DNA of 46,594 bases from Dactylosporangium siamense. Lineage in GTDB: Bacteria > Actinomycetota > Actinomycetes > Mycobacteriales > Micromonosporaceae. Below the pieces are notes generated by a model. The model saw only the letters and a list, made by a program, of their open reading frames with translations. It made no database searches and was not told where the DNA came from. The stretch spans positions 1 to 46,594 of the forward strand of contig NZ_BONQ01000059.1 in NCBI RefSeq assembly GCF_016862795.1, in the 5' to 3' direction. Shown here in pieces: positions 1,202 to 19,099 of the stretch; within the stretch, counting starts at the first letter, position 1; each line of letters begins with the position of its first letter. The translations under genes were made by a program, and so were the position numbers.

Positions 1202-1393
1202 ATGGAGCACCGCTGCGGCAAGCATGCCGTCCTGGCCAACCCGGCGTCGCGCATCCCGGTCTGGATGGAGTGCGCCGTCCACCGGTACACCGGCTACCAG
1301 ATCGACCGCCGCTTCGCCGTCGTCGTCGCCCTGGAGTTCTCCTACGAGGAGACCGCGTCATACGAGTGGATCATCGAACACGGCATGCTCTAG
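1202..1393 (+). CDS. Small hypothetical protein (63 aa)
   Basis: Short ORF starting at ATG 1202 (MEHRCGKHAVLANP...) and ending in a TAG whose CTAG context also holds the stop of the convergent homocitrate-synthase-like gene. Two Cys and several His near the N-terminus (HRCGKH, ECAVHR) could bind metal, but the spacing matches no family I recognise. No signal peptide or membrane segment. The amino-acid mix looks protein-like, and the frame ends exactly at the neighbour's stop, which favours a real gene. No clear Shine-Dalgarno sequence. I do not assign a function. Confidence 0.42.
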   Translation: MEHRCGKHAVLANPASRIPVWMECAVHRYTGYQIDRRFAVVVALEFSYEETASYEWIIEHGML

Positions 1394-2637
1394 CTCGTGT
1401 ACCCCGGATAGAGCAGCGCCAGCTCGTCCGGATACGTGGCGATCAGCCGCAGCTCGTCGTCGGTCAGCGGCCGTCCCGTCGCCGCGTTGCACAGCTGGAC
1501 GAGCTTGAACGCCAGGTCCTCGTCCTTGACGTCGACACCGAGGTCGTCCATGACGTGCCGGAAGCCGGCGAGGCCGCCGTACTCGCCGGTGAGCACCAGC
1601 CGGCCGTTCCTGGCGTGCCGGTCGGCGGGGAACGGGCCGAGGGTGTCGTCGTCGTACAGCTCGTAGTTGCGATGGTCCTTGAGCGCCCCGTCGGCGTGGA
1701 TGCCCGACTCGTGCGCGAACGCGTTGACCCCGACGCCCGGCTGGTGCTGCGGCAGCGGCTGGCCGAACGCGTAGGACGCCCAGGCCGCGAACCGGCGCGC
1801 CCAGGTCAGGTCGATCGGGTCGCCGATGGCGTTTTCGGGCACGCCGAAGCCGTGCCGCAGCGCCAGGATGGTGGAGATCAGGTCCGCGTTGCCGGACCGC
1901 TCGCCGATCCCGTTGACGCACGTGTTGATCCACGCGTCCTGCCCCGCGGCCAGGTCGCCGAACGCGCCCGCGAGGGAGTTGGCGACGGCCATGCCGAGGT
2001 CGTTGTGGCAGTGCGTCTCCACCGGCATCCCGGTCGCCGTCGCGAGGGCGGCGAACCGTTCCCCGATCCGGCCGGGGGTGTCGCCGCCGATGGTGTCGCA
2101 GTACCGGACCCGGTCGGCACCCGCCGCACGGGCGGCGATCGCGAACTCGGTGAGGAACCCGTCGTCGGTCCGCGACCCGTCCTCGGCGTTGACCCCGACC
2201 GTCCGGACGCCGGCCTGCTTCGCCGCCCGCACCGCGGCAACCATCTCCCGGATGACGGCGGCGCGGTCGAGCCGGCCCCGGAACTTCCCCCGCAGCATCT
2301 GATCCGACGTCGAGATCGACAGGTTGTAGTGCTCCAGGCCCAGCGGCGCGGCCTTCTCGACGTCGCCCTGGACGGCCCGGCACCAGCCTGACAGCCGCAG
2401 GTCGTGGAACGCGCCGGCCTGCTGCAGGGCGAGCTGCGCCCGCACGTACGGCACCTCGTGGAACAGGAACGGGAAGCCGATCTCCGACTGGGCGACACCC
2501 AGCTTGGCCAGGTAGAAATTGACCATCGTCTTGCCGAACTTCGACAGCCCGGTCCGAGCGGTCTGGACCCCGTCACGGTTGGTGACGTCGAGGAAGTGAA
2601 TCTGTGGCATGCCTTCGAGGTTGACCGTACGCCGCAT
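1390..2637 (-). CDS. Homocitrate / 2-isopropylmalate synthase-like acyltransferase (DRE-TIM)
   Basis: DRE-TIM metallolyase enzyme expected to condense acetyl-CoA (or another acyl-CoA) with a 2-oxoacid. N-terminal signature DVTNRDGVQT holds the catalytic Arg-Asp pair; metal-ligand motif ETHCHNDLGMAVANS and the conserved GIGERSGNADL follow. At 415 aa it lacks the C-terminal LeuA regulatory domain, so it fits the homocitrate-synthase/NifV/Re-citrate-synthase branch better than canonical LeuA. Substrate cannot be decided by eye. Two starts are possible: ATG 2637 (used here, no obvious SD) or ATG 2610 (MPQIHFLDVT). It diverges from a citrate synthase gene with only 39 bp between them, so shared regulation and linked chemistry are likely. 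Confidence 0.85.
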   Translation of the reverse strand: MRRTVNLEGMPQIHFLDVTNRDGVQTARTGLSKFGKTMVNFYLAKLGVAQSEIGFPFLFHEVPYVRAQLALQQAGAFHDLRLSGWCRAVQGDVEKAAPLGLEHYNLSISTSDQMLRGKFRGRLDRAAVIREMVAAVRAAKQAGVRTVGVNAEDGSRTDDGFLTEFAIAARAAGADRVRYCDTIGGDTPGRIGERFAALATATGMPVETHCHNDLGMAVANSLAGAFGDLAAGQDAWINTCVNGIGERSGNADLISTILALRHGFGVPENAIGDPIDLTWARRFAAWASYAFGQPLPQHQPGVGVNAFAHESGIHADGALKDHRNYELYDDDTLGPFPADRHARNGRLVLTGEYGGLAGFRHVMDDLGVDVKDEDLAFKLVQLCNAATGRPLTDDELRLIATYPDELALLYPGYTS

Positions 2638-2676: not shown

Positions 2677-4173
2677 GTGGGCAGGTGGATCGGGGCGGAC
2701 GAGGCGTCCCGGCGGCTCGGTGTGAAACCCGCCACCCTCTATGCGTATGTCAGCCGCGGTGTCCTGGCCCGTCGTAAGGGCGATGACGGCCGGAGCGTGT
2801 TCGACTCGGAGGAGATCGAGCGCCTCGCCCTGCGCGGCCGCCCCCGCCACCGCCCCGGCGCCGCGTCGGAGCTGGTGATCGAGTCGGCGGTGACCCTGCT
2901 CGGCCCGGACCGCGCGTACTACCGCGGCCGCGACGCCATCGACCTCGCCGCGACGGCCACCTTCGAGGCGGCCGCCACCTGGCTGTGGACCGGCGACCCG
3001 GCGGCCGGTGCCGCCGGGTGGGTCGCGGATCCGGTCGCGGTGGCGGCGGCCCGCGCGGCACAGGACCGGCTCCCACCGGGAGTGCTGCCCCTGGAGCGGC
3101 TCCAGGTCATCACCACGACGCTCGCCGCCGCCGACCCGGTCCGCCTGACCCTGGACCCGGAGGCGGTCATCCGCACCGGCCGGTCCCTGATCGCCGGCCT
3201 CATCGACGCGCTGCCCAACCCGTCCGCCGTCGCCGTTCCCGGCACCGGTGCCGTTCCCGGCGCCGGATCCGCGGTCGGCACCGGATCCGCGGCCGACGGC
3301 GGGGGTGCGGCGGGCGGCGGGGGTGCGATCGCGTGGCGGCTGTGGGAGAAGCTTGCCGCGCCCGACGCCGATCCCGCGCTCGCCGACGTGCTGCGGTTCG
3401 CGATGGTGCTGCTCGCCGACCATGAGCTGGCCGCGTCGACCCTCGCCGCCAGGGTCGCCGCCTCGGTGCGCGCCGACCCCTATGCCGTCGTCGCGGCCGG
3501 CCTCGGCGTCACCAGCGGCGCCCTGCACGGCGGCGCCTCCCTCGGCGTCGAGGCGATGCTCGCCGAGGCCACCGACCCGTCCCTGGCCGGCGCCGTGATG
3601 GGCCAGCGGCTCCGCCGCGGCGAACGCATCCCGGGCTTCGGCCACGCCGTCTACAAGTCCGGCGACGCCCGCGCCACGGCGCTCCTCGACCGCATCCGCG
3701 CCGCGACCCGTCCCGATCCGTCCGCCTCCGCCCCGCCATCTGCGGACCCGGTCGTCGCGGCGGCCATCGACCCGGTCGCTGCGGCAGTCACCAGTCCGGT
3801 CGCCTCGGGGATCACCGGCCCGGTCGCCTCGGGGATCACCGGTCCGGTCGCCTCGGGGATCACCGGTCCGGTCACGTCGGTGGTCACCGGCACGGTCGCT
3901 GCCCCGGTCCGCGCCGGCCGGGTCGGCGTGCCGCATCCGGCGCTCGCCGTCGCCGACGCGATCCTCGCCGAGGCGGGCCGCCGCCACCTCCCGCACGTCA
4001 ACGTCGACTTCGCTCTCGGCCTGCTGACCACCCTCGCCGGCATGCCCCGCGGCGCCGGCGAGGCGATCTTCGCCGTCGCCCGCACCGCGGGCTGGCTCGC
4101 CCACGCCATGGAGGAGTACGCCCACCCGACCAGGCTCCGGCTACGCGCCTCGTACACCGGCCCGCTCGCCTGA
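2677..4173 (+). CDS. Citrate synthase with N-terminal MerR-like HTH
   Basis: Citrate/2-methylcitrate synthase family enzyme (498 aa) condensing an acyl-CoA with oxaloacetate. GTG start at 2677, with AGGAG at 2666-2670. Residues about 5-60 form a MerR-like DNA-binding domain (ADEASRRLGVKPATLYAYV). Citrate synthase catalytic motifs are intact: GALHGGAS (His), PGFGHAVYK (His) and NVDFALGLL (Asp). Two low-complexity insertions interrupt the enzyme: a Gly/Ala-rich stretch around residues 190-215, and six octapeptide repeats at residues 358-405, between the second catalytic His and the catalytic Asp. HTH-citrate synthases are a recognised actinobacterial type, but the repeats are unusual. Whether the protein binds DNA, perhaps the palindrome at 2643, is unknown. 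Confidence 0.9.
   Translation: MGRWIGADEASRRLGVKPATLYAYVSRGVLARRKGDDGRSVFDSEEIERLALRGRPRHRPGAASELVIESAVTLLGPDRAYYRGRDAIDLAATATFEAAATWLWTGDPAAGAAGWVADPVAVAAARAAQDRLPPGVLPLERLQVITTTLAAADPVRLTLDPEAVIRTGRSLIAGLIDALPNPSAVAVPGTGAVPGAGSAVGTGSAADGGGAAGGGGAIAWRLWEKLAAPDADPALADVLRFAMVLLADHELAASTLAARVAASVRADPYAVVAAGLGVTSGALHGGASLGVEAMLAEATDPSLAGAVMGQRLRRGERIPGFGHAVYKSGDARATALLDRIRAATRPDPSASAPPSADPVVAAAIDPVAAAVTSPVASGITGPVASGITGPVASGITGPVTSVVTGTVAAPVRAGRVGVPHPALAVADAILAEAGRRHLPHVNVDFALGLLTTLAGMPRGAGEAIFAVARTAGWLAHAMEEYAHPTRLRLRASYTGPLA
3748..3891 (+). repeat. Six 24-bp tandem repeats inside the citrate synthase gene
   Basis: In-frame repeats of 24 bp starting at 3748, 3772, 3796, 3820, 3844 and 3868. 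Each encodes an octapeptide of the PVASGITG type. The three central copies are nearly identical (one base differs); the outer ones are diverged. They form a Val/Ala/Gly/Thr loop inserted between catalytic motifs. Confidence 0.85.
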
Positions 4174-4188
4174 CGCGCTCCTATCGCT

Positions 4189-4242
4189 CATGATCCCGGA
4201 GACCTCGGGCAGTCACAGGTGCGCGAACTCGACCGGATCATG
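4189..4242. repeat. 54-bp palindromic element, copy C (diverged)
   Basis: Ends in the perfect 11-bp inverted arms GCTCATGATCC (4186-4196) and GGATCATGAGC (4235-4245). It aligns without gaps to the element at 6438-6491 (40 of 54 positions by hand count). Outer pair 2/53 and inner pair 18/37 changed on both sides, preserving pairing, while some inner pairs are lost. It lies between two convergent stop codons; its right half encodes the last residues of the YhhN protein. Likely a bidirectional terminator. Confidence 0.65.
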
Positions 4243-4872
4243 AGCAGTGCGCGGGGTGGCGCTGCCGGTGGTGATGAGCAGGAGCGCGGCGATGTACGTG
4301 GTCATGACGACCAGGTCGCGGCCGGGGAAGTCCAGGTCGGCGGCGCCCAGGCCGATCAGCAGATCCGAGAGCAGGAACAGCGCGGCGCCCAGGGCGACCA
4401 CCCGGGACACGCCCGCCGCGGCGGCGGCCATGGCGCTCAACGCCAGGCTGTACACCAGAATCGGGACACGCAACGCACCCAGTGACGGCCACAGCAGGAC
4501 GTTGAGCGCCGCCCACAACACGCCGTAGCCGATCGCCGCGGGCAGCAGCAGGGGAGCGCGGCGGCGGAAGGCGAGCAGGAAGCAGATCTGGGTGCCCAGG
4601 AAGCAGGCCATGCCCAGCAGGAAGGGCACGGAGCCCGGCACGAGCAGGGCGACGTCGCCCGCGAAGGCGAAGACCAGACCCCACCCGACGAGGACGCTCA
4701 GGCCGTGGTCTCGGTCGGGCCGTAGGGACATGCCGGCCTTGCGGTAGAGGTACCAGAGCAGCAACGGGGCAAGGAGCGGCTTGGCGATCCACTGCAACGG
4801 GTGCCAGGCCAGCGCGACACCCGTGAGCTCGACAGCGGCGGCGACGGCGAAGAGCCGCAGGGGCAGGCTCAT
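4213..4872 (-). CDS. YhhN/TMEM86-family lysoplasmalogenase
   Basis: Integral membrane protein (219 aa) with about eight hydrophobic segments and YhhN-family features (HPLQWIAKPLLAPLLLW near the N-terminus, then GDVALLV and FLLSDLLIGL motifs). Characterised family members hydrolyse the vinyl-ether bond of lysoplasmalogens, giving an aldehyde and a glycerophospho-headgroup. ATG at 4872 overlaps the upstream TGA by four bases (ATGA), so translation is probably coupled to the hydroxylase gene. The final residues (HDPVEFAHL) are encoded inside palindromic element C, hinting that the repeat replaced the original C-terminus. Third gene of a predicted ether-lipid operon. Confidence 0.8.
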   Translation of the reverse strand: MSLPLRLFAVAAAVELTGVALAWHPLQWIAKPLLAPLLLWYLYRKAGMSLRPDRDHGLSVLVGWGLVFAFAGDVALLVPGSVPFLLGMACFLGTQICFLLAFRRRAPLLLPAAIGYGVLWAALNVLLWPSLGALRVPILVYSLALSAMAAAAAGVSRVVALGAALFLLSDLLIGLGAADLDFPGRDLVVMTTYIAALLLITTGSATPRTAHDPVEFAHL

Positions 4873-5693
4873 GAGGGCTGCCAGCCGGGGCGGCCGAACA
4901 CGAAGCGCAGGCGGTCCCGCCAGGTGGACGCCGACCGCACGTCACGCCAGATGTCGCGGTACTCGTGGGTGGCGACGCGCAGGGGGTTGTAGGTGCCGAT
5001 GTTCTTCGTCAGGCCGTAGCGGACGCGGGCCTGCTCGGGTTCGAACGTGCGGAAGAGGCGGTCCCAGATGATGAGGATGCCGCCGTAGTTGCGGTCCAGG
5101 TATTCGGGGTTGGCGCCGTGGTGGACGCGGTGGTGTGACGGGGTGTTGAAGAACCACTCGAGCGGCGGCCACAGGCGGTTGACCCGCTCGCTGTGCAGGA
5201 AGAACTGGTAGGCGAGGCTGATCGACTGCTGCAGGAACACCATCCACGGCGGGATGCCCAGCAGGGGCAGGAACAGCCAGAACGGGGTGCTGGTCATCGG
5301 GGTCCAGCTCTGCCGCAGCGCCGTGGACAGGTTGAAGAAGACGCTGGAGTGGTGCACGACGTGACCGGCCCAGAAGAGCCGGATCTCGTGGTGCAGGCGG
5401 TGGAACCAGTAGTAGGCGAAGTCGTCGGCGAAGAACAGCAGCGCCCAGGTCCACGGGCTGTGCGGGTCGAGCTTCAGCGGGGTGAGGACGTACAGGCCGG
5501 CGAAGGCGAGCGCGACGAGGATCTTCCACGGCACGCCGATCACCTGGCTGCCGAGGCCCATGGAGAGGCTGGTGCTGGTGTCGCGGACCTCGTAGCCGCG
5601 CTCGTCGTCGTCGGGCAGGAAGCGGTAGGAGATCGCCTCCATGACGATGAGCAGCAGGAACGCGGGCACGGCGTAGAGCACGGCGGGGATCAT
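4869..5693 (-). CDS. Fatty-acid hydroxylase/sterol desaturase superfamily, alkylglycerol-monooxygenase-like
   Basis: Membrane di-iron oxygenase of 274 aa. ATG at 5693 is preceded by GGAAGG. The superfamily histidine clusters are complete: WFHRLHHE, GHVVHH and SHHRVHHG. Hydrophobic segments occupy roughly residues 1-20, 50-70 and 130-165. From the cluster WAGHVVHH through NLSTALRQS, FNTPSHHRVHHG, NYGGILIIWDR and RYGLTKNI, it resembles animal alkylglycerol monooxygenase (AGMO/TMEM195) more than sterol C5-desaturases (recalled motifs, not an alignment). AGMO cleaves O-alkyl glycerol ethers and in animals needs tetrahydrobiopterin. The neighbouring lysoplasmalogenase supports an ether-lipid role. 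Overlaps the preceding gntR stop and the following start by four bases each. Other hydroxylase substrates remain possible. Confidence 0.8.
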   Translation of the reverse strand: MIPAVLYAVPAFLLLIVMEAISYRFLPDDDERGYEVRDTSTSLSMGLGSQVIGVPWKILVALAFAGLYVLTPLKLDPHSPWTWALLFFADDFAYYWFHRLHHEIRLFWAGHVVHHSSVFFNLSTALRQSWTPMTSTPFWLFLPLLGIPPWMVFLQQSISLAYQFFLHSERVNRLWPPLEWFFNTPSHHRVHHGANPEYLDRNYGGILIIWDRLFRTFEPEQARVRYGLTKNIGTYNPLRVATHEYRDIWRDVRSASTWRDRLRFVFGRPGWQPS

Positions 5694-6391
5694 GCTCGGG
5701 TTTCCTTCCGGTCCGATATGGGGGCGGTGAGCAGGGTCTGGGCCTCGGCGAAGGCCTCGGCGGAGGCGCCGGCGGCGATGTGCGCGGCGAGCCGGCGGTG
5801 GCCGGCGACGTCGAGCAGCTCGGCGGTGCGCAGGGTGGGCGGGACGTGACCGACGGCGAGCGCGCCGCTGACGAGGCTGTTGAAGGCCAGGAGGTACGCG
5901 GTGTTGCCGCTGCCCGCCACGACGGCCCGCCACAGCGCGACGTTCGCCTCGCCCATGCGGTCCAGGTCGGGGGCGGCGGCGGCGAGCGCGTCGACCGAGG
6001 CGATGACGGTTTCCTTTGCGGCGGGGGTGCCGCGGAGCGCGCACAACCTGGCCGCGTCGGCTCCCAGGCAGGCACGCATCTCCATCATGTCGCGCACGAG
6101 GGTGCTGACCGGCAGGATGTCGCCGCTGGACATCGCAAGGTCGAGGCCGGCGTGCACCCGCCAGTCCAGGACCCTGGTCGCGCCGCCCTGGCTGACCTTG
6201 ACCAGGCCGAGCTGCTGCAGCCGGCGCAGCGCCTCGCGCACGGCGTGCCGGTTCACCTCGAACGTCGCGGCGAGCTCCCGCTCGCTCGGCAGCGGGGCGT
6301 CGGGCGCGTAGGCGCCGCTGAGGACGGCGTCGCGCAGCTGCGCGAAGACGTGGTCGGACACGGAGCTGCGGGGTGCCGGCGTCAATGTCAC
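5690..6391 (-). CDS. GntR/FadR-family transcriptional regulator
   Basis: Regulator of 233 aa. Residues 5-75 form the GntR winged helix (VFAQLRDAVLSGAYAPDAPLPSERELA, then VNRHAVREALRRLQQLGLV). The C-terminal part is an all-helical FCD-type effector domain (DMMEMRACLGADAARLCA...). It is the first gene of the operon and its stop overlaps the hydroxylase start (ATGA). A perfect FadR-type palindrome lies 22 bp upstream, so autoregulation and control of the operon are likely. A lipid-derived acid or acyl-CoA is a plausible effector, by analogy with the family and operon content (inference). Confidence 0.9.
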   Translation of the reverse strand: MTLTPAPRSSVSDHVFAQLRDAVLSGAYAPDAPLPSERELAATFEVNRHAVREALRRLQQLGLVKVSQGGATRVLDWRVHAGLDLAMSSGDILPVSTLVRDMMEMRACLGADAARLCALRGTPAAKETVIASVDALAAAAPDLDRMGEANVALWRAVVAGSGNTAYLLAFNSLVSGALAVGHVPPTLRTAELLDVAGHRRLAAHIAAGASAEAFAEAQTLLTAPISDRKETRA

Positions 6392-6413
6392 GCGGCGACT
6401 GTCTCACACATCA

Positions 6414-6428
6414 ACTGGTTGGACCAGT
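6414..6428. promoter_or_regulatory. FadR-type operator
   Basis: ACTGGTTGGACCAGT is a perfect inverted repeat (ACTGGT-TGG-ACCAGT). It contains the TGGT-N3-ACCA core known for FadR-subfamily GntR regulators. It lies 22 bp upstream of the regulator start, where binding would block its own promoter. Confidence 0.75.
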
Positions 6429-6437
6429 CCCGCGTTT

Positions 6438-6491
6438 CGTGATCCGGTAGACCTTGGGCACCCAGGGGTACGCAAGGTCTACCGGATCACG
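6438..6491. repeat. 54-bp palindromic element, copy A
   Basis: Perfect 19-bp arms (6438-6456 and 6473-6491) flank a 16-base centre that itself contains ACCC-AG-GGGT. It starts six bases after the stop of the transglycosylase-like gene and ends about 45 bases upstream of the gntR start. It probably terminates the 6498-7187 transcript and insulates the ether-lipid operon promoter. No T-tract is present. See copies at 4189 and 34130. Confidence 0.8.
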
Positions 6492-6497
6492 GGAAAG

Positions 6498-7187
6498 CTA
6501 GTCGGTAAGGCTGTCCACGATCTTCTGGGCCGTCGTGGCGTGTTTGGCGTACGCGCTGGCGAAGGCGCTGCGTTGCACGGCCTGGGCGGCGCCGGTGACG
6601 CTCATCGACTGCCAGCCGGAGACCTTCATCAGCTTCGCGTAGAACTTCGCCGACGCGAACGCCGGGTCCATCAGCTGCTCGACCGTGCCCCAGATGCTGA
6701 CCCGCTGCTGGAAGATGCCGAGCGAGTCGTAGTTGGTCCCGGTGCCCTCATGCGGCAGCTTCAGTGACGCCGGGACCTTCGGATTGGCCAGGTTCTTGAG
6801 GTACGTCTCCTGCAGCGCCGTCGCGATCGCCACGACGTACGCCCGCTCGGGCAGGCCCAGCTGCCGGCCGACCTCGATGACGATGTACGCGTTGTTGGTC
6901 GCCGCCTGGGTGAGCCCGGCGACCGGCTTCGGGACCAGCGACGCGCCGGGCGCCGAGGCCAGCTCGACCCCGCGGGCCGCGTTGGCCCGGGCGTGTGTCT
7001 CGTAGAACTTGGCCGCGTCGAAGGAGGTGTCGTCGGTGACCGCCGCCGGCTCGTTGGGGAAGATCGCCCACGAGACACCGACGCTGATCAATGAGGCGAC
7101 GAGGCTGACCGCGGCAAGCAACGCCATCCTGCTGAAATGCAGGCGACGTGCGGCAGCGCGCCTACGCCGGGGGGTGGCGCCACGCAC
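6498..7187 (-). CDS. Membrane-anchored lytic-transglycosylase-like protein
   Basis: 229-aa protein with a basic N-terminus and one hydrophobic segment (residues about 21-45), consistent with a signal anchor and an extracytoplasmic body. Residues about 90-225 match the actinobacterial lysozyme-like domain seen in cell-wall hydrolases: a helix with ATALQETYLKNL (candidate catalytic Glu), then SLGIFQQRVSIWGT, QLMDPAFASAKFY and AAQAVQRSAFASAYAKH. It likely binds or cleaves peptidoglycan; activity is unproven. GTG start at 7187 without a strong SD; the ATG at codon 21 would remove the basic tail. It lies 51 bp downstream of the M3 peptidase gene, on the same strand. Confidence 0.75.
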   Translation of the reverse strand: MRGATPRRRRAAARRLHFSRMALLAAVSLVASLISVGVSWAIFPNEPAAVTDDTSFDAAKFYETHARANAARGVELASAPGASLVPKPVAGLTQAATNNAYIVIEVGRQLGLPERAYVVAIATALQETYLKNLANPKVPASLKLPHEGTGTNYDSLGIFQQRVSIWGTVEQLMDPAFASAKFYAKLMKVSGWQSMSVTGAAQAVQRSAFASAYAKHATTAQKIVDSLTD

Positions 7188-16202: not shown

Positions 16203-16748
16203 CTACTTCCCGGTGGCGTAGAACGCCTGGATGGTCAGGGACAGGGAGGTCTTGCCGTCGGTGGTCGCGGCGTTCACGGCTCCGACGAGCAGCGCCCGGG
16301 GCTGCACCTTCTGCAGCTGGTCGAGGAACGGGTTGATCTTCGCGGCGGGCCCGGAGGCGGTGAGGCTGATCGGCAGCGTGTGCACCGTCAGCGGCCCGGC
16401 GACGGTGAGGTCGGTCGCGCCGCCGACGCTGACCCCGCTGACGGTGACCCCGGTCAGGTCGCCGGCGACCTGCACCTCGCGCAGCAGCGCCGCCACCGAG
16501 TCCGTCTCCGGCAGCGCGGCGAGGTCCTCCTTCACCTGCGCGGTGTACTCGTTGAGGCGCTTGTTCTCCTTGTCCAGGTCCGCGATCTGGCTGCGCAGCT
16601 TCGCCACGTCGACGGTGGTGTCGTTGGCCAGGGTCCGCAGGTCGTCGGCCTCCTGATACCGCGGCTGGATGGCGAGGTAGTAGCCGGCCACCAGCAGGAT
16701 GACGGCGGTGAACGCGCCGCCCAGGATCCAGAGCCGTTCGGGTCGCAT
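16203..16748 (-). CDS. pilO: Type IV pilus alignment protein PilO
   Basis: 181-aa inner-membrane protein: a short cytoplasmic N-terminus, one hydrophobic helix (WILGGAFTAVILLVAGYYLAI, residues 7-27), a coiled coil (about residues 30-75, QIADLDKENKRLNEYTAQ), then a ferredoxin-like domain ending FYATGK. With PilM and PilN it forms the platform linking the cytoplasmic motor to the growing pilus. ATG 16748 shares a base with the PilN stop (TGATG). There is no PilP lipoprotein or PilQ secretin gene after it, as expected in a monoderm. Confidence 0.85.
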   Translation of the reverse strand: MRPERLWILGGAFTAVILLVAGYYLAIQPRYQEADDLRTLANDTTVDVAKLRSQIADLDKENKRLNEYTAQVKEDLAALPETDSVAALLREVQVAGDLTGVTVSGVSVGGATDLTVAGPLTVHTLPISLTASGPAAKINPFLDQLQKVQPRALLVGAVNAATTDGKTSLSLTIQAFYATGK

Positions 16749-19099
16749 CACTTGCCTCCTGACGCGCTCGGGACCGCGCTGGGCGACGCGAACCGCCCGC
16801 CGAGCGCCGCCTTGGTGACGTCGACCCGGATGGTGAAGTTCAGGACCTTGTCGCTCTGGGTCGTGTCCGACGGGAACGGGTTGTCCAGGCCCTTGACGGT
16901 GCCGAGGGTGTCGACGTAGGCCGCGACCTCGTCCTTCGACGGTGCCGTGCCGGCGAGGGTGATGGTGCCGATCACGTCGCCGGTGGCGACCTTCGTGTCC
17001 TGCACGCTCAGCGCGCCCGTCACGCTCGTCACGGCGACGCCCTTCGGCGCCGCCTTCTGCAGCGAGGTGAGCAGCGCCGACCAGGACAGGTCCCGCTCCA
17101 TCACGATCCCGAGCTGGGTCGTGATGTCCTTGATCTGCTGGCGGGTCGCCTCCAGCTCGGTGTACGTCGCCTTCTTGCGGTTCAGGTCCCGCCGGCTGTC
17201 CTGCGCGGCGGTGAGCTCCGACTGCGCCTGGTCGGTGTTGCCGTCGGCGACCATGTACCAGCCGAACAGCAGCGCCAGGCACACCGCCACGCCGGTGATT
17301 ACGAGCCGCCGCACCATCCGCAGCCGCCGCAGGTCCGTGATCTCCAACGGCAGCAGGTCGGCCGCGATCGGCAGGATGCGCATCGTGCGCGCGGTCGCCT
17401 CCGGGAACGCGGGATGCGGCGTTGCCTCCTTGGTCCGTTTCGCCGGTACGGGCACCGCCTGCCGATCCGCTCCGGTCCCTTGCGCCGGGGCACTCGGCAC
17501 ACTCTGGTGCGTCGCGTGCACGACGGCGGGCACGGCGGGCTGCATCGCGGTCACCGCGCCGGCGGCCCCTCCGGCGGACGGCGGCCCGGCCTGACCAGGC
17601 CCGGCCGGGCCCGTCCCGGCCGCGGGCGGCATCGTGGCGGGCGGCATGGTCGCGGGCTGCATCGTGTGGCCGGTGGGCGGGATGGACGGCGGTGCCGGTC
17701 GAGGCGGCGGCGGGACGCTGGCCTCGGGCACCCCGGGCGGCAGCGGCACCGGGTACGGCGGCGCCGGATGCGCCGCGCCCGGATGCGCCGCGCCCGTGTG
17801 TTCTGCGCCCGTGTGTGGTGCGGCCGGGTGTGGTGCGGCGGTTGCCTGGCCCGCGGCGGCCGGTGTGGGTCCCGGCGGCATCGCGGCCGGTGGCATCCGG
17901 GTCGAGGGCATCGTGGCCGGTGGCATGGTCCGGGTCGCGGGTTCCGGTGGGATGGTGGCCGGTGGCATGGTCCGGGTCTCGGCGGGAGCGGGCTCGGCCT
18001 GCGGGGCCGGCCTGGGTGGCCGGGGCGGCGCGGTGAACTGGACGCCCGGCAGCGACACGGGTGCCGGCGGCTCGTCCGGCGGTGCGGCGGGCGGCAGCGG
18101 GGCCGGCCGGGGGGTGGCGTGCCGGTCGGCGGCCGGCGCGGGCATGGTCGGCTGCGGCGCCCACGTCACGGCCGCCTGGGTCTGCGGCAGTGCCGGGTCG
18201 GCTGTCCAGGACTGCGGTGGTGTGGCTGCGTCGGGCGTCCAGCTCTGCGGTGGTGCGGCCGGGTCGGGCGTCCAGCTCTGCGGTGGTGTGGCCGGGTCGG
18301 GCGTCCAGCTCTGCGGTGGTGTGGCCGGGTCGGGTGTCCAGGACCGCGATGGCGTGGCCGCGTCGGGCGTCCAGGACCGCGGTGGTGCGGCTGCGTCGGG
18401 CGTCCAGGACTGCGGTGCCGGCGTCCAGGACTGCGGGGCCGGCGTCCTGAGCTCGGCGGTGGCGTTCTGCGGCTGGACGGCGGTGGGGGAAGGTTCGGCG
18501 CCGGGCAGGACGAGTTCGCCGGCGATGTAGCGGGGGAACTCCCGCCGGGGCGCGGCCGTCTCCGCCTTCGCCGACTGCGAGACGAGGGCGTTCTGCGCAC
18601 CGGGGTCGGGCTCCGGCAGCGGCGGCAGGTCGACCCGCGCGTGCGGCTGGTCCACGGGCGCCAGGTCGGCGGGCGGCCACATCGGCGGCGGCCCCGACGG
18701 CACGACGGGCACGAGCCGCTGCTGCGGCTCGGCGGCGAGGGGGGCCTCCCGCCGCCAGCCACCGTCGAGCGGGCCGGTCAGCGGGTCGTCGAGAGGACCG
18801 GTCAGTGGGTCGTTGAGCGGGTCGACGGACCGGCCGGCCCACTGCTCGTCCGCCGGCCGTTCCCAAGCCTGGTCGACCGGCCGGTCCCAGGTCTGCTCCG
18901 GCGACCGGTTCCAGGCATCGTCCGCCGGTCGGTCGCCGCGGTTGTCACGGTCGCCGCGGTCGCCGCGGTCGCCGCGGTCGCCGCGGTTGTCACGGTCGTC
19001 GGAGTCGTCGGAGTCGTCGCCCCAGGAGGGCAGGACGATGCCGGTCAGCTTGCGTTCCGGCTCGTCCTCCCACCAGGTGCCGGGGGTCTGGCCGGTCAC
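16748..19099 (-). CDS. pilN: PilN with very long proline-rich repeat extension
   Basis: 783-aa protein, roughly four times the usual PilN length (~180-200 aa). Residues ~570-783 are an ordinary PilN: a short cytoplasmic part (LPIAADLLPLEI), a membrane helix (RLVITGVAVCLALLFGWYMVA, about 597-617), a coiled coil and a fimbrial-assembly domain. Residues 1-565 are low complexity: an acidic D-S-D/R-G-D repeat tract, DPLTGPLD repeats, eight SWTP units, then long Pro/Ala/Met stretches (MPPATMPP). By topology this tail is cytoplasmic, beside PilM. GTG start at 19099 overlaps the PilM stop (GTGA). Conserved-looking N-terminal residues WWEDEPERKLTG may be a docking peptide (inference). Confidence 0.82.
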   Translation of the reverse strand: MTGQTPGTWWEDEPERKLTGIVLPSWGDDSDDSDDRDNRGDRGDRGDRGDRDNRGDRPADDAWNRSPEQTWDRPVDQAWERPADEQWAGRSVDPLNDPLTGPLDDPLTGPLDGGWRREAPLAAEPQQRLVPVVPSGPPPMWPPADLAPVDQPHARVDLPPLPEPDPGAQNALVSQSAKAETAAPRREFPRYIAGELVLPGAEPSPTAVQPQNATAELRTPAPQSWTPAPQSWTPDAAAPPRSWTPDAATPSRSWTPDPATPPQSWTPDPATPPQSWTPDPAAPPQSWTPDAATPPQSWTADPALPQTQAAVTWAPQPTMPAPAADRHATPRPAPLPPAAPPDEPPAPVSLPGVQFTAPPRPPRPAPQAEPAPAETRTMPPATIPPEPATRTMPPATMPSTRMPPAAMPPGPTPAAAGQATAAPHPAAPHTGAEHTGAAHPGAAHPAPPYPVPLPPGVPEASVPPPPRPAPPSIPPTGHTMQPATMPPATMPPAAGTGPAGPGQAGPPSAGGAAGAVTAMQPAVPAVVHATHQSVPSAPAQGTGADRQAVPVPAKRTKEATPHPAFPEATARTMRILPIAADLLPLEITDLRRLRMVRRLVITGVAVCLALLFGWYMVADGNTDQAQSELTAAQDSRRDLNRKKATYTELEATRQQIKDITTQLGIVMERDLSWSALLTSLQKAAPKGVAVTSVTGALSVQDTKVATGDVIGTITLAGTAPSKDEVAAYVDTLGTVKGLDNPFPSDTTQSDKVLNFTIRVDVTKAALGGRFASPSAVPSASGGK
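18180..18447. repeat. 33-bp repeats encoding SWTPDxATPPQ units
   Basis: Tandem 33-bp units (the end units are shorter) encode eight Ser-Trp-Thr-containing peptides of the form SWTPDPATPPQ in the PilN extension. The central copies differ by only a few bases, suggesting recent expansion or homogenisation. Confidence 0.8.
18931..19020. repeat. 9-bp tandem repeats (Asp/Arg/Gly tract of PilN)
   Basis: Runs of GTCGCCGCG-type and GTCGGA-type units encode an alternating DRGDRGDRGD and DDSDD tract near the PilN N-terminus (about residues 27-56). The tract is strongly charged and length-variable repeats of this kind are slippage-prone. Confidence 0.65.

What the first reader, a model, noticed from the sequence alone, without database searches (positions are those of the whole stretch)
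4213..6428. Predicted ether-lipid catabolic operon (FadR-type regulator, AGMO-like oxygenase, lysoplasmalogenase)
Three coupled genes (both joins are ATGA) put two enzymes that each break glyceryl ether bonds side by side: an alkylglycerol-monooxygenase-like di-iron hydroxylase and a YhhN lysoplasmalogenase. A perfect FadR-type palindrome (ACTGGT-TGG-ACCAGT) lies upstream of the GntR/FadR gene. Seen: histidine clusters, overlaps, palindrome. Known: AGMO and YhhN/TMEM86 chemistry. Inferred: a bacterial pathway for scavenging or remodelling alkyl and vinyl ether lipids. I know of no described actinobacterial operon of this composition.
Basis: partly seen in the sequence, partly recalled or inferred. 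Interest (0 to 1): 0.76.

Follow-up and report, generated by a model that had tools for sequence, protein, structure and literature searches.

The report
Actinobacterial ether-lipid cleavage operon (predicted)
Three tightly joined genes in a large-genome actinobacterium look like a self-regulated unit for breaking ether-linked fats, pairing a bacterial version of the animal enzyme that cuts alkyl ethers with a relative of the enzyme that cuts vinyl ethers; the gene order and control site recur in related bacteria, but the chemistry is untested.

Summary
GntR/FCD regulator (5690-6391), FA_hydroxylase (4869-5693) and YhhN (4213-4872) lie on the minus strand, joined by two ATGA overlaps, with a perfect dyad ACTGGT-N3-ACCAGT before the regulator. 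The hydroxylase keeps all 15 residues reported as essential in human AGMO, including a Gln that is His in the five paralogues compared. YhhN follows AGMO on the same strand in 38 of 78 assessable named loci, in two deep AGMO clades; the genes also co-occur when unlinked. The dyad (consensus CTGGTCCAACCAGTT) lies before the regulator or AGMO in 20 of 21 regulator-linked loci; its core equals the E. coli FadR fadBA site. One relative has AGMO, an SDR and an alkyl-DHAP-synthase homologue in a row; the window's genome has such a homologue elsewhere. Caveats: YhhN has Gln for one of eight catalytic residues; the AGMO-like protein (274 aa) lacks the C-terminal membrane region of animal AGMO; its cofactor is unresolved; no eukaryotic AGMO was in the tree; no activity is shown. 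Known parts in a combination I found in no paper of the library searched: a new variant of a known kind.

The parts
5690..6391 (-). GntR/FCD regulator of the FadR subfamily (P0003, 233 aa); predicted local repressor of the operon
   Evidence: Pfam GntR and FCD over cut-off; best solved relative by sequence is 9wfi, named Rv0494 / fatty acid metabolism regulator, E 5e-18, and E. coli FadR 1hw1 aligns over residues 20-212, E 9e-10; NCBIfam: NanR 81.4, PdhR 63.6, FadR 49.5 bits, all under cut-off; a homologue neighbours the AGMO-like gene in 21 of the 129 AGMO loci labelled
4869..5693 (-). AGMO-like di-iron membrane oxygenase (P0002, 274 aa); predicted to hydroxylate the alkyl ether alpha carbon, giving a hemiacetal that falls apart to aldehyde and glycerol lipid
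   Evidence: FA_hydroxylase 96.3 bits; 9 of 9 His and 6 of 6 other AGMO-essential residues of the PMC7911779 Fig. 2 legend; AF2 mean pLDDT 81.6, mostly helical
4213..4872 (-). YhhN/TMEM86-family membrane protein (P0001, 219 aa); predicted lysoplasmalogenase-like vinyl-ether hydrolase, Gln-95 variant
   Evidence: YhhN 106.6 bits; 7 of 8 residues tested in TMEM86A/B kept: K31 G72 D73 G162 S169 D170 Y193; His replaced by Gln at position 95
6413..6428 (.). Operator-like site: dyad ACTGGT-N3-ACCAGT (read on the minus strand ACTGGTCCAACCAGTT), predicted autoregulatory site of the regulator
   Evidence: same CTGGTNNNACCAG core as the E. coli FadR fadBA probe in PMC4259882 (passage)
4869..4872 (-). 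ATGA stop/start overlap AGMO/YhhN (translational coupling inferred)
5690..5693 (-). ATGA stop/start overlap regulator/AGMO (translational coupling inferred)

Best explanation
The three genes form one autoregulated operon for cleaving glycerol ether lipids. The FadR-type protein binds the dyad just upstream of its own gene and represses the operon, and is probably released by a fatty-acid-derived ligand (inferred from its kinship to FadR/Rv0494). The AGMO-like membrane di-iron enzyme hydroxylates the carbon next to the ether oxygen of 1-O-alkyl glycerol or lyso-ether lipids. The YhhN protein adds water to the vinyl ether of lysoplasmalogens. By known chemistry both reactions pass through the same kind of hemiacetal and yield a fatty aldehyde plus the freed glycerol lipid, so one operon would deal with both ether types and feed beta-oxidation and glycerol-lipid salvage. 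Shown here: gene anatomy, catalytic residues, conserved linkage and conserved site. Inferred: repression, ligand, substrates, products.
For: All 15 AGMO-essential residues in P0002; the five non-AGMO paralogues aligned have His where AGMO has Q162. YhhN directly 3' of AGMO on the same strand in 8 of the 17 relatives (of 61) that have both genes, in 7 of the 29 actinobacterial genomes (of 396) that have both, and in 38 of 78 assessable named loci. In the window's own genus 5 of 7 genomes have the adjacent pair and 2 of 7 have neither gene. Co-occurrence: 29 of 38 AGMO genomes have YhhN against 33 of 358 others, p 3e-19; by genus 14 of 21 AGMO genera, p 4e-8; by family 10 of 13, p 1.5e-5, taking 88 families, the highest number seen. 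Operator-like site in 20 of 21 regulator-linked loci: before the regulator in 15, before AGMO where AGMO comes first (L013, L065), in the regulator-AGMO gap in L030, L066, L067. Flanking genes differ between several genomes while the triad stays. In Patulibacter (L066) the gene row is regulator, AGMO, SDR, alkyl-DHAP-synthase homologue (E 4e-67 to 2uuu). The window's genome has such a homologue, E 2e-71, keeping the HHH motif. Lysoplasmalogenase activity is published for an actinobacterial YhhN (PMC9052158, abstract and sections 15 and 25 seen).
Against: The YhhN has Gln at the His position; in TMEM86A/B alanine there lowered activity but was one of the exceptions that kept over 10% (PMC11994398 passages). 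P0002 ends 3 residues after its PGW motif and lacks the C-terminal region with TM6-9 of animal AGMO. Of the residues beyond the histidines only Q162 sets AGMO apart from all five paralogues: three of the five share D233, N235, W243 and D244, and eight further paralogue loci were not matched by the profile and so not compared. The regulator's best NCBIfam models are NanR and PdhR, not FadR, all far under cut-off. BH4-pathway marker PTPS does not track AGMO (12 of 21 AGMO genomes against 22 of 40 others, hand count) and two same-genus genomes with the operon had no PTPS match. No aromatic amino acid hydroxylase match in the window's genome. No plasmalogen desaturase (PF10520) in 61 genomes, but no control rang. 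9 of 38 AGMO genomes have no YhhN over cut-off, and 40 of 78 named loci lack an adjacent one. Foldseek found no PDB match at E <= 0.001. Co-occurrence tests are not corrected for phylogeny beyond the genus and family counts.
Confidence: 0.6

Rival explanations
1. The operon remodels or degrades the bacterium's own ether lipids, made with its alkyl-DHAP-synthase-like enzyme, instead of scavenging ether lipids from outside.
For: The window's genome encodes a synthase homologue (57% identity to the L066 one; E 2e-71 to a solved alkyl-DHAP synthase). Homologues of at least 50% identity are enriched in AGMO genomes, 13 of 38 against 18 of 358, and any homologue at E <= 1e-40, 28 of 38 against 99 of 358. 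In L066 the genes are near neighbours.
Against: The homologue is unlinked to the operon in the window's genome. 25 of 38 AGMO genomes lack a close homologue. No paper on ether lipids in this genus was read, and I saw no assay of an actinobacterial member of this FAD family.
Confidence: 0.3
2. The AGMO-like oxygenase has a different substrate (a secondary metabolite, hopanoid or other membrane lipid), and its pairing with YhhN reflects general membrane-lipid housekeeping.
For: A bacterial AGMO-like enzyme, PRUB680, cyclises prodigiosin (PMC6667630 and PMC7484904 passages). PTPS does not track the gene. The shorter protein lacks TM6-9. Many AGMO-like genes stand without an adjacent YhhN.
Against: 15 of 15 AGMO-essential residues, YhhN linkage in two clades and co-occurrence when unlinked, and the nearby alkyl-DHAP-synthase homologue in L066.
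Confidence: 0.22
3. The Gln-type YhhN is no longer a lysoplasmalogenase but handles the product of its operon partner, for example speeding collapse of the hemiacetal or a related ether.
For: Hand tally: with AGMO of the window's 13-row clade or its near neighbour L013, 14 of 14 YhhN copies have Gln (11 linked, 3 unlinked); with AGMO of the Streptomyces-type rows (the 58 rows outside the 71-row clade), 42 of 43 resolved copies have His. The other catalytic residues stay nearly invariant.
Against: The rest of the window's AGMO group is mixed (L087, L160, L161, L171 His; L172 Gln), and Gln also occurs without a strong AGMO (L164, L165) and with a Streptomyces-type one (L170). Alanine at this place does not abolish TMEM86 activity.
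Confidence: 0.12

Closest known systems
Animal alkylglycerol monooxygenase (AGMO/TMEM195)
   Same: All nine di-iron histidines and Q162, D233, N235, Y236, W243, D244 at the same spacing except for one extra residue between H201 and H221 (residue list from the PMC7911779 legend)
   Different: 274 aa, so no room for the C-terminal TM6-9 (human positions 334-433); BH4 dependence unknown and PTPS not co-occurring; bacterial and in an operon
YhhN/TMEM86 lysoplasmalogenases (M. tuberculosis Rv1401, Legionella YhhN, TMEM86A/B)
   Same: Pfam YhhN over cut-off; seven of eight tested catalytic residues
   Different: Gln replaces His-104/108; the gene is coupled to an AGMO-like gene, whereas in the genomes of family f8 that have both (f8 rows group with Mycobacteriaceae in the tree) they lie apart
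FadR (E. coli) and Rv0494-type GntR regulators
   Same: Best solved relatives by sequence over most of the length; operator core CTGGTNNNACCAG as in the fadBA FadR probe (PMC4259882 passage)
   Different: C-terminal domain hits FCD; FadR models at 49.5 of 189 bits, lower than NanR (81.4 of 260) and PdhR (63.6 of 330); one perfect site in the genome, so probably a local and not a global regulator
PRUB680, AGMO-like prodigiosin cyclase
   Same: Described as an AGMO-like bacterial oxygenase
   Different: Its sequence was not compared here; it stands away from its pigment cluster and acts on prodigiosin

Membership tests
AGMO | Eight (nine) conserved di-iron histidines | tested here: met
   H98 H102 H111 H114 H115 H167 H188 H191 H192 match human 132 136 145 148 149 201 221 224 225
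AGMO | Six further residues essential for activity (Q162 D233 N235 Y236 W243 D244) | tested here: met
   Q128 D200 N202 Y203 W210 D211; the five non-AGMO paralogues aligned have His at the Q162 place, while three of them share D233, N235, W243 and D244
AGMO | Nine transmembrane segments incl. C-terminal TM6-9 | tested here: not met
   P0002 is 274 aa and ends 3 residues after the PGW motif. Hence called AGMO-like, not AGMO
AGMO | Tetrahydrobiopterin dependence | tested here: inconclusive
   PTPS in 12 of 21 AGMO genomes and 22 of 40 others; two matches in the window's genome; no BH4 amino acid hydroxylase match there. Other tetrahydropterins not tested
AGMO | Cleavage of 1-O-alkylglycerols | not testable with these tools
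   needs enzyme assay
AGMO | Clusters with eukaryotic AGMO in a tree | not tested
   no eukaryotic sequence was fetched; only bacterial relatives and five paralogues in the tree
YhhN lysoplasmalogenase | YhhN domain | tested here: met
   106.6 bits, cut-off 25.6
YhhN lysoplasmalogenase | Eight residues tested in TMEM86A/B (K G D H G S D Y) | tested here: not met
   seven of eight; His is Gln-95. Filed as a YhhN-family protein; the enzyme activity is inferred
YhhN lysoplasmalogenase | Hydrolysis of lysoplasmenyl lipids | not testable with these tools
   needs enzyme assay
FadR-type regulators | GntR winged helix and operator core CTGGTNNNACCAG | tested here: met
   (binding itself not tested)
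FadR-type regulators | Orthology to E. coli FadR | tested here: not met
   FCD domain; FadR models at 49.5 of 189 and 45.2 of 249.2 bits, below NanR and PdhR models
FadR-type regulators | Release by acyl-CoA | not testable with these tools
   needs binding assay

The most novel reading that the evidence does not exclude
Aerobic actinobacteria make alkyl ether lipids with an alkyl-DHAP-synthase and turn them over with a FadR-like-controlled AGMO-YhhN operon, a bacterial ether-lipid cycle built from the parts known from animals, with an AGMO that runs without the C-terminal domain and perhaps without BH4.
Probability: 0.25. Interest if true: 0.82.

Novelty: new variant of a known kind. Interest (0 to 1): 0.62.

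Why it matters
[quoted passage not shown] abstract in the listing and passages). A 274-residue bacterial form would give a small protein for structure and cofactor work, and a regulated operon that pairs both ether-cleaving chemistries would make bacterial ether-lipid turnover directly testable. The conserved operator-like site gives a simple handle for finding the inducing lipid.

Tried and rejected
Carotenoid, ornithine-lipid or sterol hydroxylase identity: NCBIfam gives only a weak OlsE hit, 45 of 475 bits, and the residue set is AGMO's; no named carotenoid or sterol enzyme was put in the tree, so this is not fully excluded. PDB by sequence: nothing useful for P0002 or its profile. Foldseek with the AF2 model: no match at E <= 0.001. 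Plasmalogen desaturase CarF in relatives: none in 61 genomes, uninformative since no control rang. PTPS co-occurrence as a BH4 test: no association. Operator as a global regulon: the reversed control pattern had more near-matches (669) than the pattern (207), so no genome-wide enrichment. Of 13 non-AGMO paralogue loci given to the profile only five (L002, L025, L026, L151, L154) were matched and compared; L147-L150, L152, L153, L155 and L156 were not. First neighbourhood scripts were wrong, because the gene picker missed genes and a fused open frame let AGMO match the YhhN query; redone with profiles. Gene clustering around the loci was dominated by antisense frames and shared Streptomyces synteny and was not used. 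Literature: searches (30 of 69 papers listed) listed no paper that by title or abstract start describes a bacterial AGMO-YhhN operon; full texts were not read beyond the passages and sections named; 'lysoplasmalogenase' with 'sterol desaturase' gave 0 papers. Subscription papers are mostly not held, so this is not proof of absence.
Full report
Anatomy. The window lies in a 12.7-Mb genome whose family (f1) groups with Micromonosporaceae in the tree; the genus is not named by any search. On the minus strand three genes run from 6391 to 4213: a GntR/FCD regulator, an FA_hydroxylase protein and a YhhN protein. Both joins are ATGA. A perfect dyad, read ACTGGTCCAACCAGTT on the minus strand, ends 22 nt before the regulator's GTG. 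The next gene upstream (6498-7187) is on the same strand and is separated from the operon by an inverted repeat with 26-nt arms at 6438-6491, likely its terminator. Downstream is a convergent citrate-synthase-like gene. So the unit is three genes plus the site.

The oxygenase. The review of AGMO lists nine histidines and six other residues as essential (PMC7911779, Fig. 2 legend). P0002 has all 15 with identical spacing but for one extra residue between H201 and H221. In one search, 126 of the 131 rows taken from loci L004-L134 keep all of them apart from Y236, which is Y, F or H; the other five are two paralogues (L025, L026) and three rows that differ at Q162 or W243. The five non-AGMO paralogues that the profile could align (L002, L025, L026, L151, L154, of 13 such loci) have His where AGMO has Q162; three of them share D233, N235, W243 and D244 with AGMO but have Gln at H201. 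A tree of 134 rows sets the AGMO-like proteins apart from these five, though their branches are long and support is moderate (SH-aLRT 91). It separates a 71-row clade that holds the window from 58 Streptomyces-type rows. No eukaryotic AGMO was available, so kinship to animal AGMO rests on the residue set. The protein is 274 aa and lacks the C-terminal membrane region of animal AGMO. The AF2 model (mean pLDDT 81.6) is mostly helical, but Foldseek found no PDB match at E <= 0.001.

The YhhN protein. It scores four times the YhhN cut-off. Of eight residues that were changed to alanine in TMEM86A/B (PMC11994398 passages) it keeps K31, G72, D73, G162, S169, D170 and Y193; the His is Gln-95. In that paper His-to-Ala was among the exceptions that kept more than 10% of activity. 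Tallied by hand: where AGMO belongs to the window's 13-row clade or is its near neighbour L013, 14 of 14 YhhN copies have Gln (including three unlinked copies in G010, G019 and G048); with Streptomyces-type AGMO, 42 of 43 resolved copies have His. In the rest of the window's AGMO group it is mixed (L087, L160, L161, L171 His; L172 Gln), and Gln is also found in L164 and L165, from genomes without a strong AGMO match.

Linkage. Among 61 relatives 21 have the AGMO-like gene, 23 have YhhN over cut-off, 17 have both, and in 8 of these 17 they are adjacent in the order AGMO-YhhN. In the window's genus, 5 of 7 genomes have the pair and 2 have neither gene. Among 396 genomes of the phylum, 38 have a strong AGMO-like match, 62 have YhhN over cut-off, 29 have both, and 7 of the 29 are adjacent. 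Co-occurrence is strong (p 3e-19) and stays so by genus (14 of 21 AGMO genera, p 4e-8) and by family (10 of 13, p 1.5e-5, number of families approximate). These 80 are mostly Streptomyces, so they are not an even sample. The triad is seen in ten loci: five genomes of the window's genus, three Micromonospora and two Streptomyces, with flanks that differ between several of them. YhhN linkage needs at least 10 changes on the AGMO tree and regulator linkage 4, so the pair has formed or broken repeatedly.

The operator-like site. In 21 of 129 AGMO loci a homologue of the regulator neighbours the AGMO-like gene. In 20 of the 21 CTGGTNNNACCAGTT occurs with at most one mismatch: before the regulator in 15, before AGMO where AGMO comes first (L013, L065), or in the gap between regulator and AGMO (L030, L066 with a second, weaker copy, L067). 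The exception, L061, has a fragmentary regulator match. No locus without the regulator shows such a site within 700 nt before AGMO, though a few are cut short there. The core equals the E. coli FadR fadBA probe (PMC4259882 passage). The regulator's best solved relatives by sequence are Rv0494 and, further down, FadR, but NCBIfam scores NanR (81.4 bits) and PdhR (63.6) above FadR (49.5), all far under cut-off. So 'FadR-type' is right for the subfamily and the site, not proven for the ligand. The genome has a single perfect site and no excess of near matches, which fits a local autoregulator. The positions of the FCD metal site (recalled from general knowledge, not tested) seem not to be kept, with an invariant W154 in that area, which would fit a lipid ligand.

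Link to ether lipids. In Patulibacter (L066) the regulator and AGMO are followed by an SDR, an FAD protein whose best solved relatives are alkyl-DHAP synthases (E 4e-67), and a P450. The window's genome has a homologue (57% identity) on another contig, E 2e-71 to a solved synthase and keeping its HHH motif. Homologues of at least 50% identity occur in 13 of 38 AGMO genomes against 18 of 358 others. This is indirect support that the oxygenase acts on ether lipids, and it leaves open that the ether lipids are the cell's own.

Weak points. The electron donor is unknown: PTPS does not track AGMO (12 of 21 against 22 of 40), two same-genus genomes with the operon have no PTPS match, and the window's genome has no match to BH4 amino acid hydroxylases. 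A bacterial AGMO-like enzyme with another substrate exists (PRUB680). Half of the AGMO-like genes in the named set are without an adjacent YhhN. The empty CarF search is uninformative.

Verdict. It is a regulated combination of known enzyme kinds; I found no description of it in the searches named.

Noticed in passing
window 6438-6491: Inverted repeat with 26-nt arms, 92% complementary, 2-nt loop, between the upstream gene and the operon; probably the terminator of 6498-7187.
   Followed up: no
window 3788-3899: 24-bp tandem repeat (4.7 copies) inside the citrate-synthase-like gene 2677-4173; Pfam matches the gene in two stretches, so the repeats may be an insert inside the enzyme domain. The gene also starts with a MerR-type helix-turn-helix.
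   Followed up: partly
window 18192-18447: 33/66-bp tandem array within a predicted minus-strand gene 16748-19099.
   Followed up: no
window 1390-2637: HMGL-like gene (closest model homocitrate synthase nifV, 247 of 463 bits) divergent from the citrate-synthase-like gene; the pairing may be a small-molecule pathway.
   Followed up: no
L066 6001-10664: Patulibacter: AGMO-like, SDR, alkyl-DHAP-synthase homologue and P450 in a row on one strand.
   Followed up: partly
L061 around 5652-5999: Mycolicibacterium MAG locus with only a fragmentary regulator match and no operator-like site, the one exception among 21 loci.
   Followed up: no
L157-L159, L164, L165, L170, L172: Unlinked YhhN proteins with Gln in place of the catalytic His; a Gln type wider than the operon.
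   Followed up: partly
G000:C18:45078-45482 (L002): Second FA_hydroxylase in the same genome, without the AGMO residue set.
   Followed up: partly
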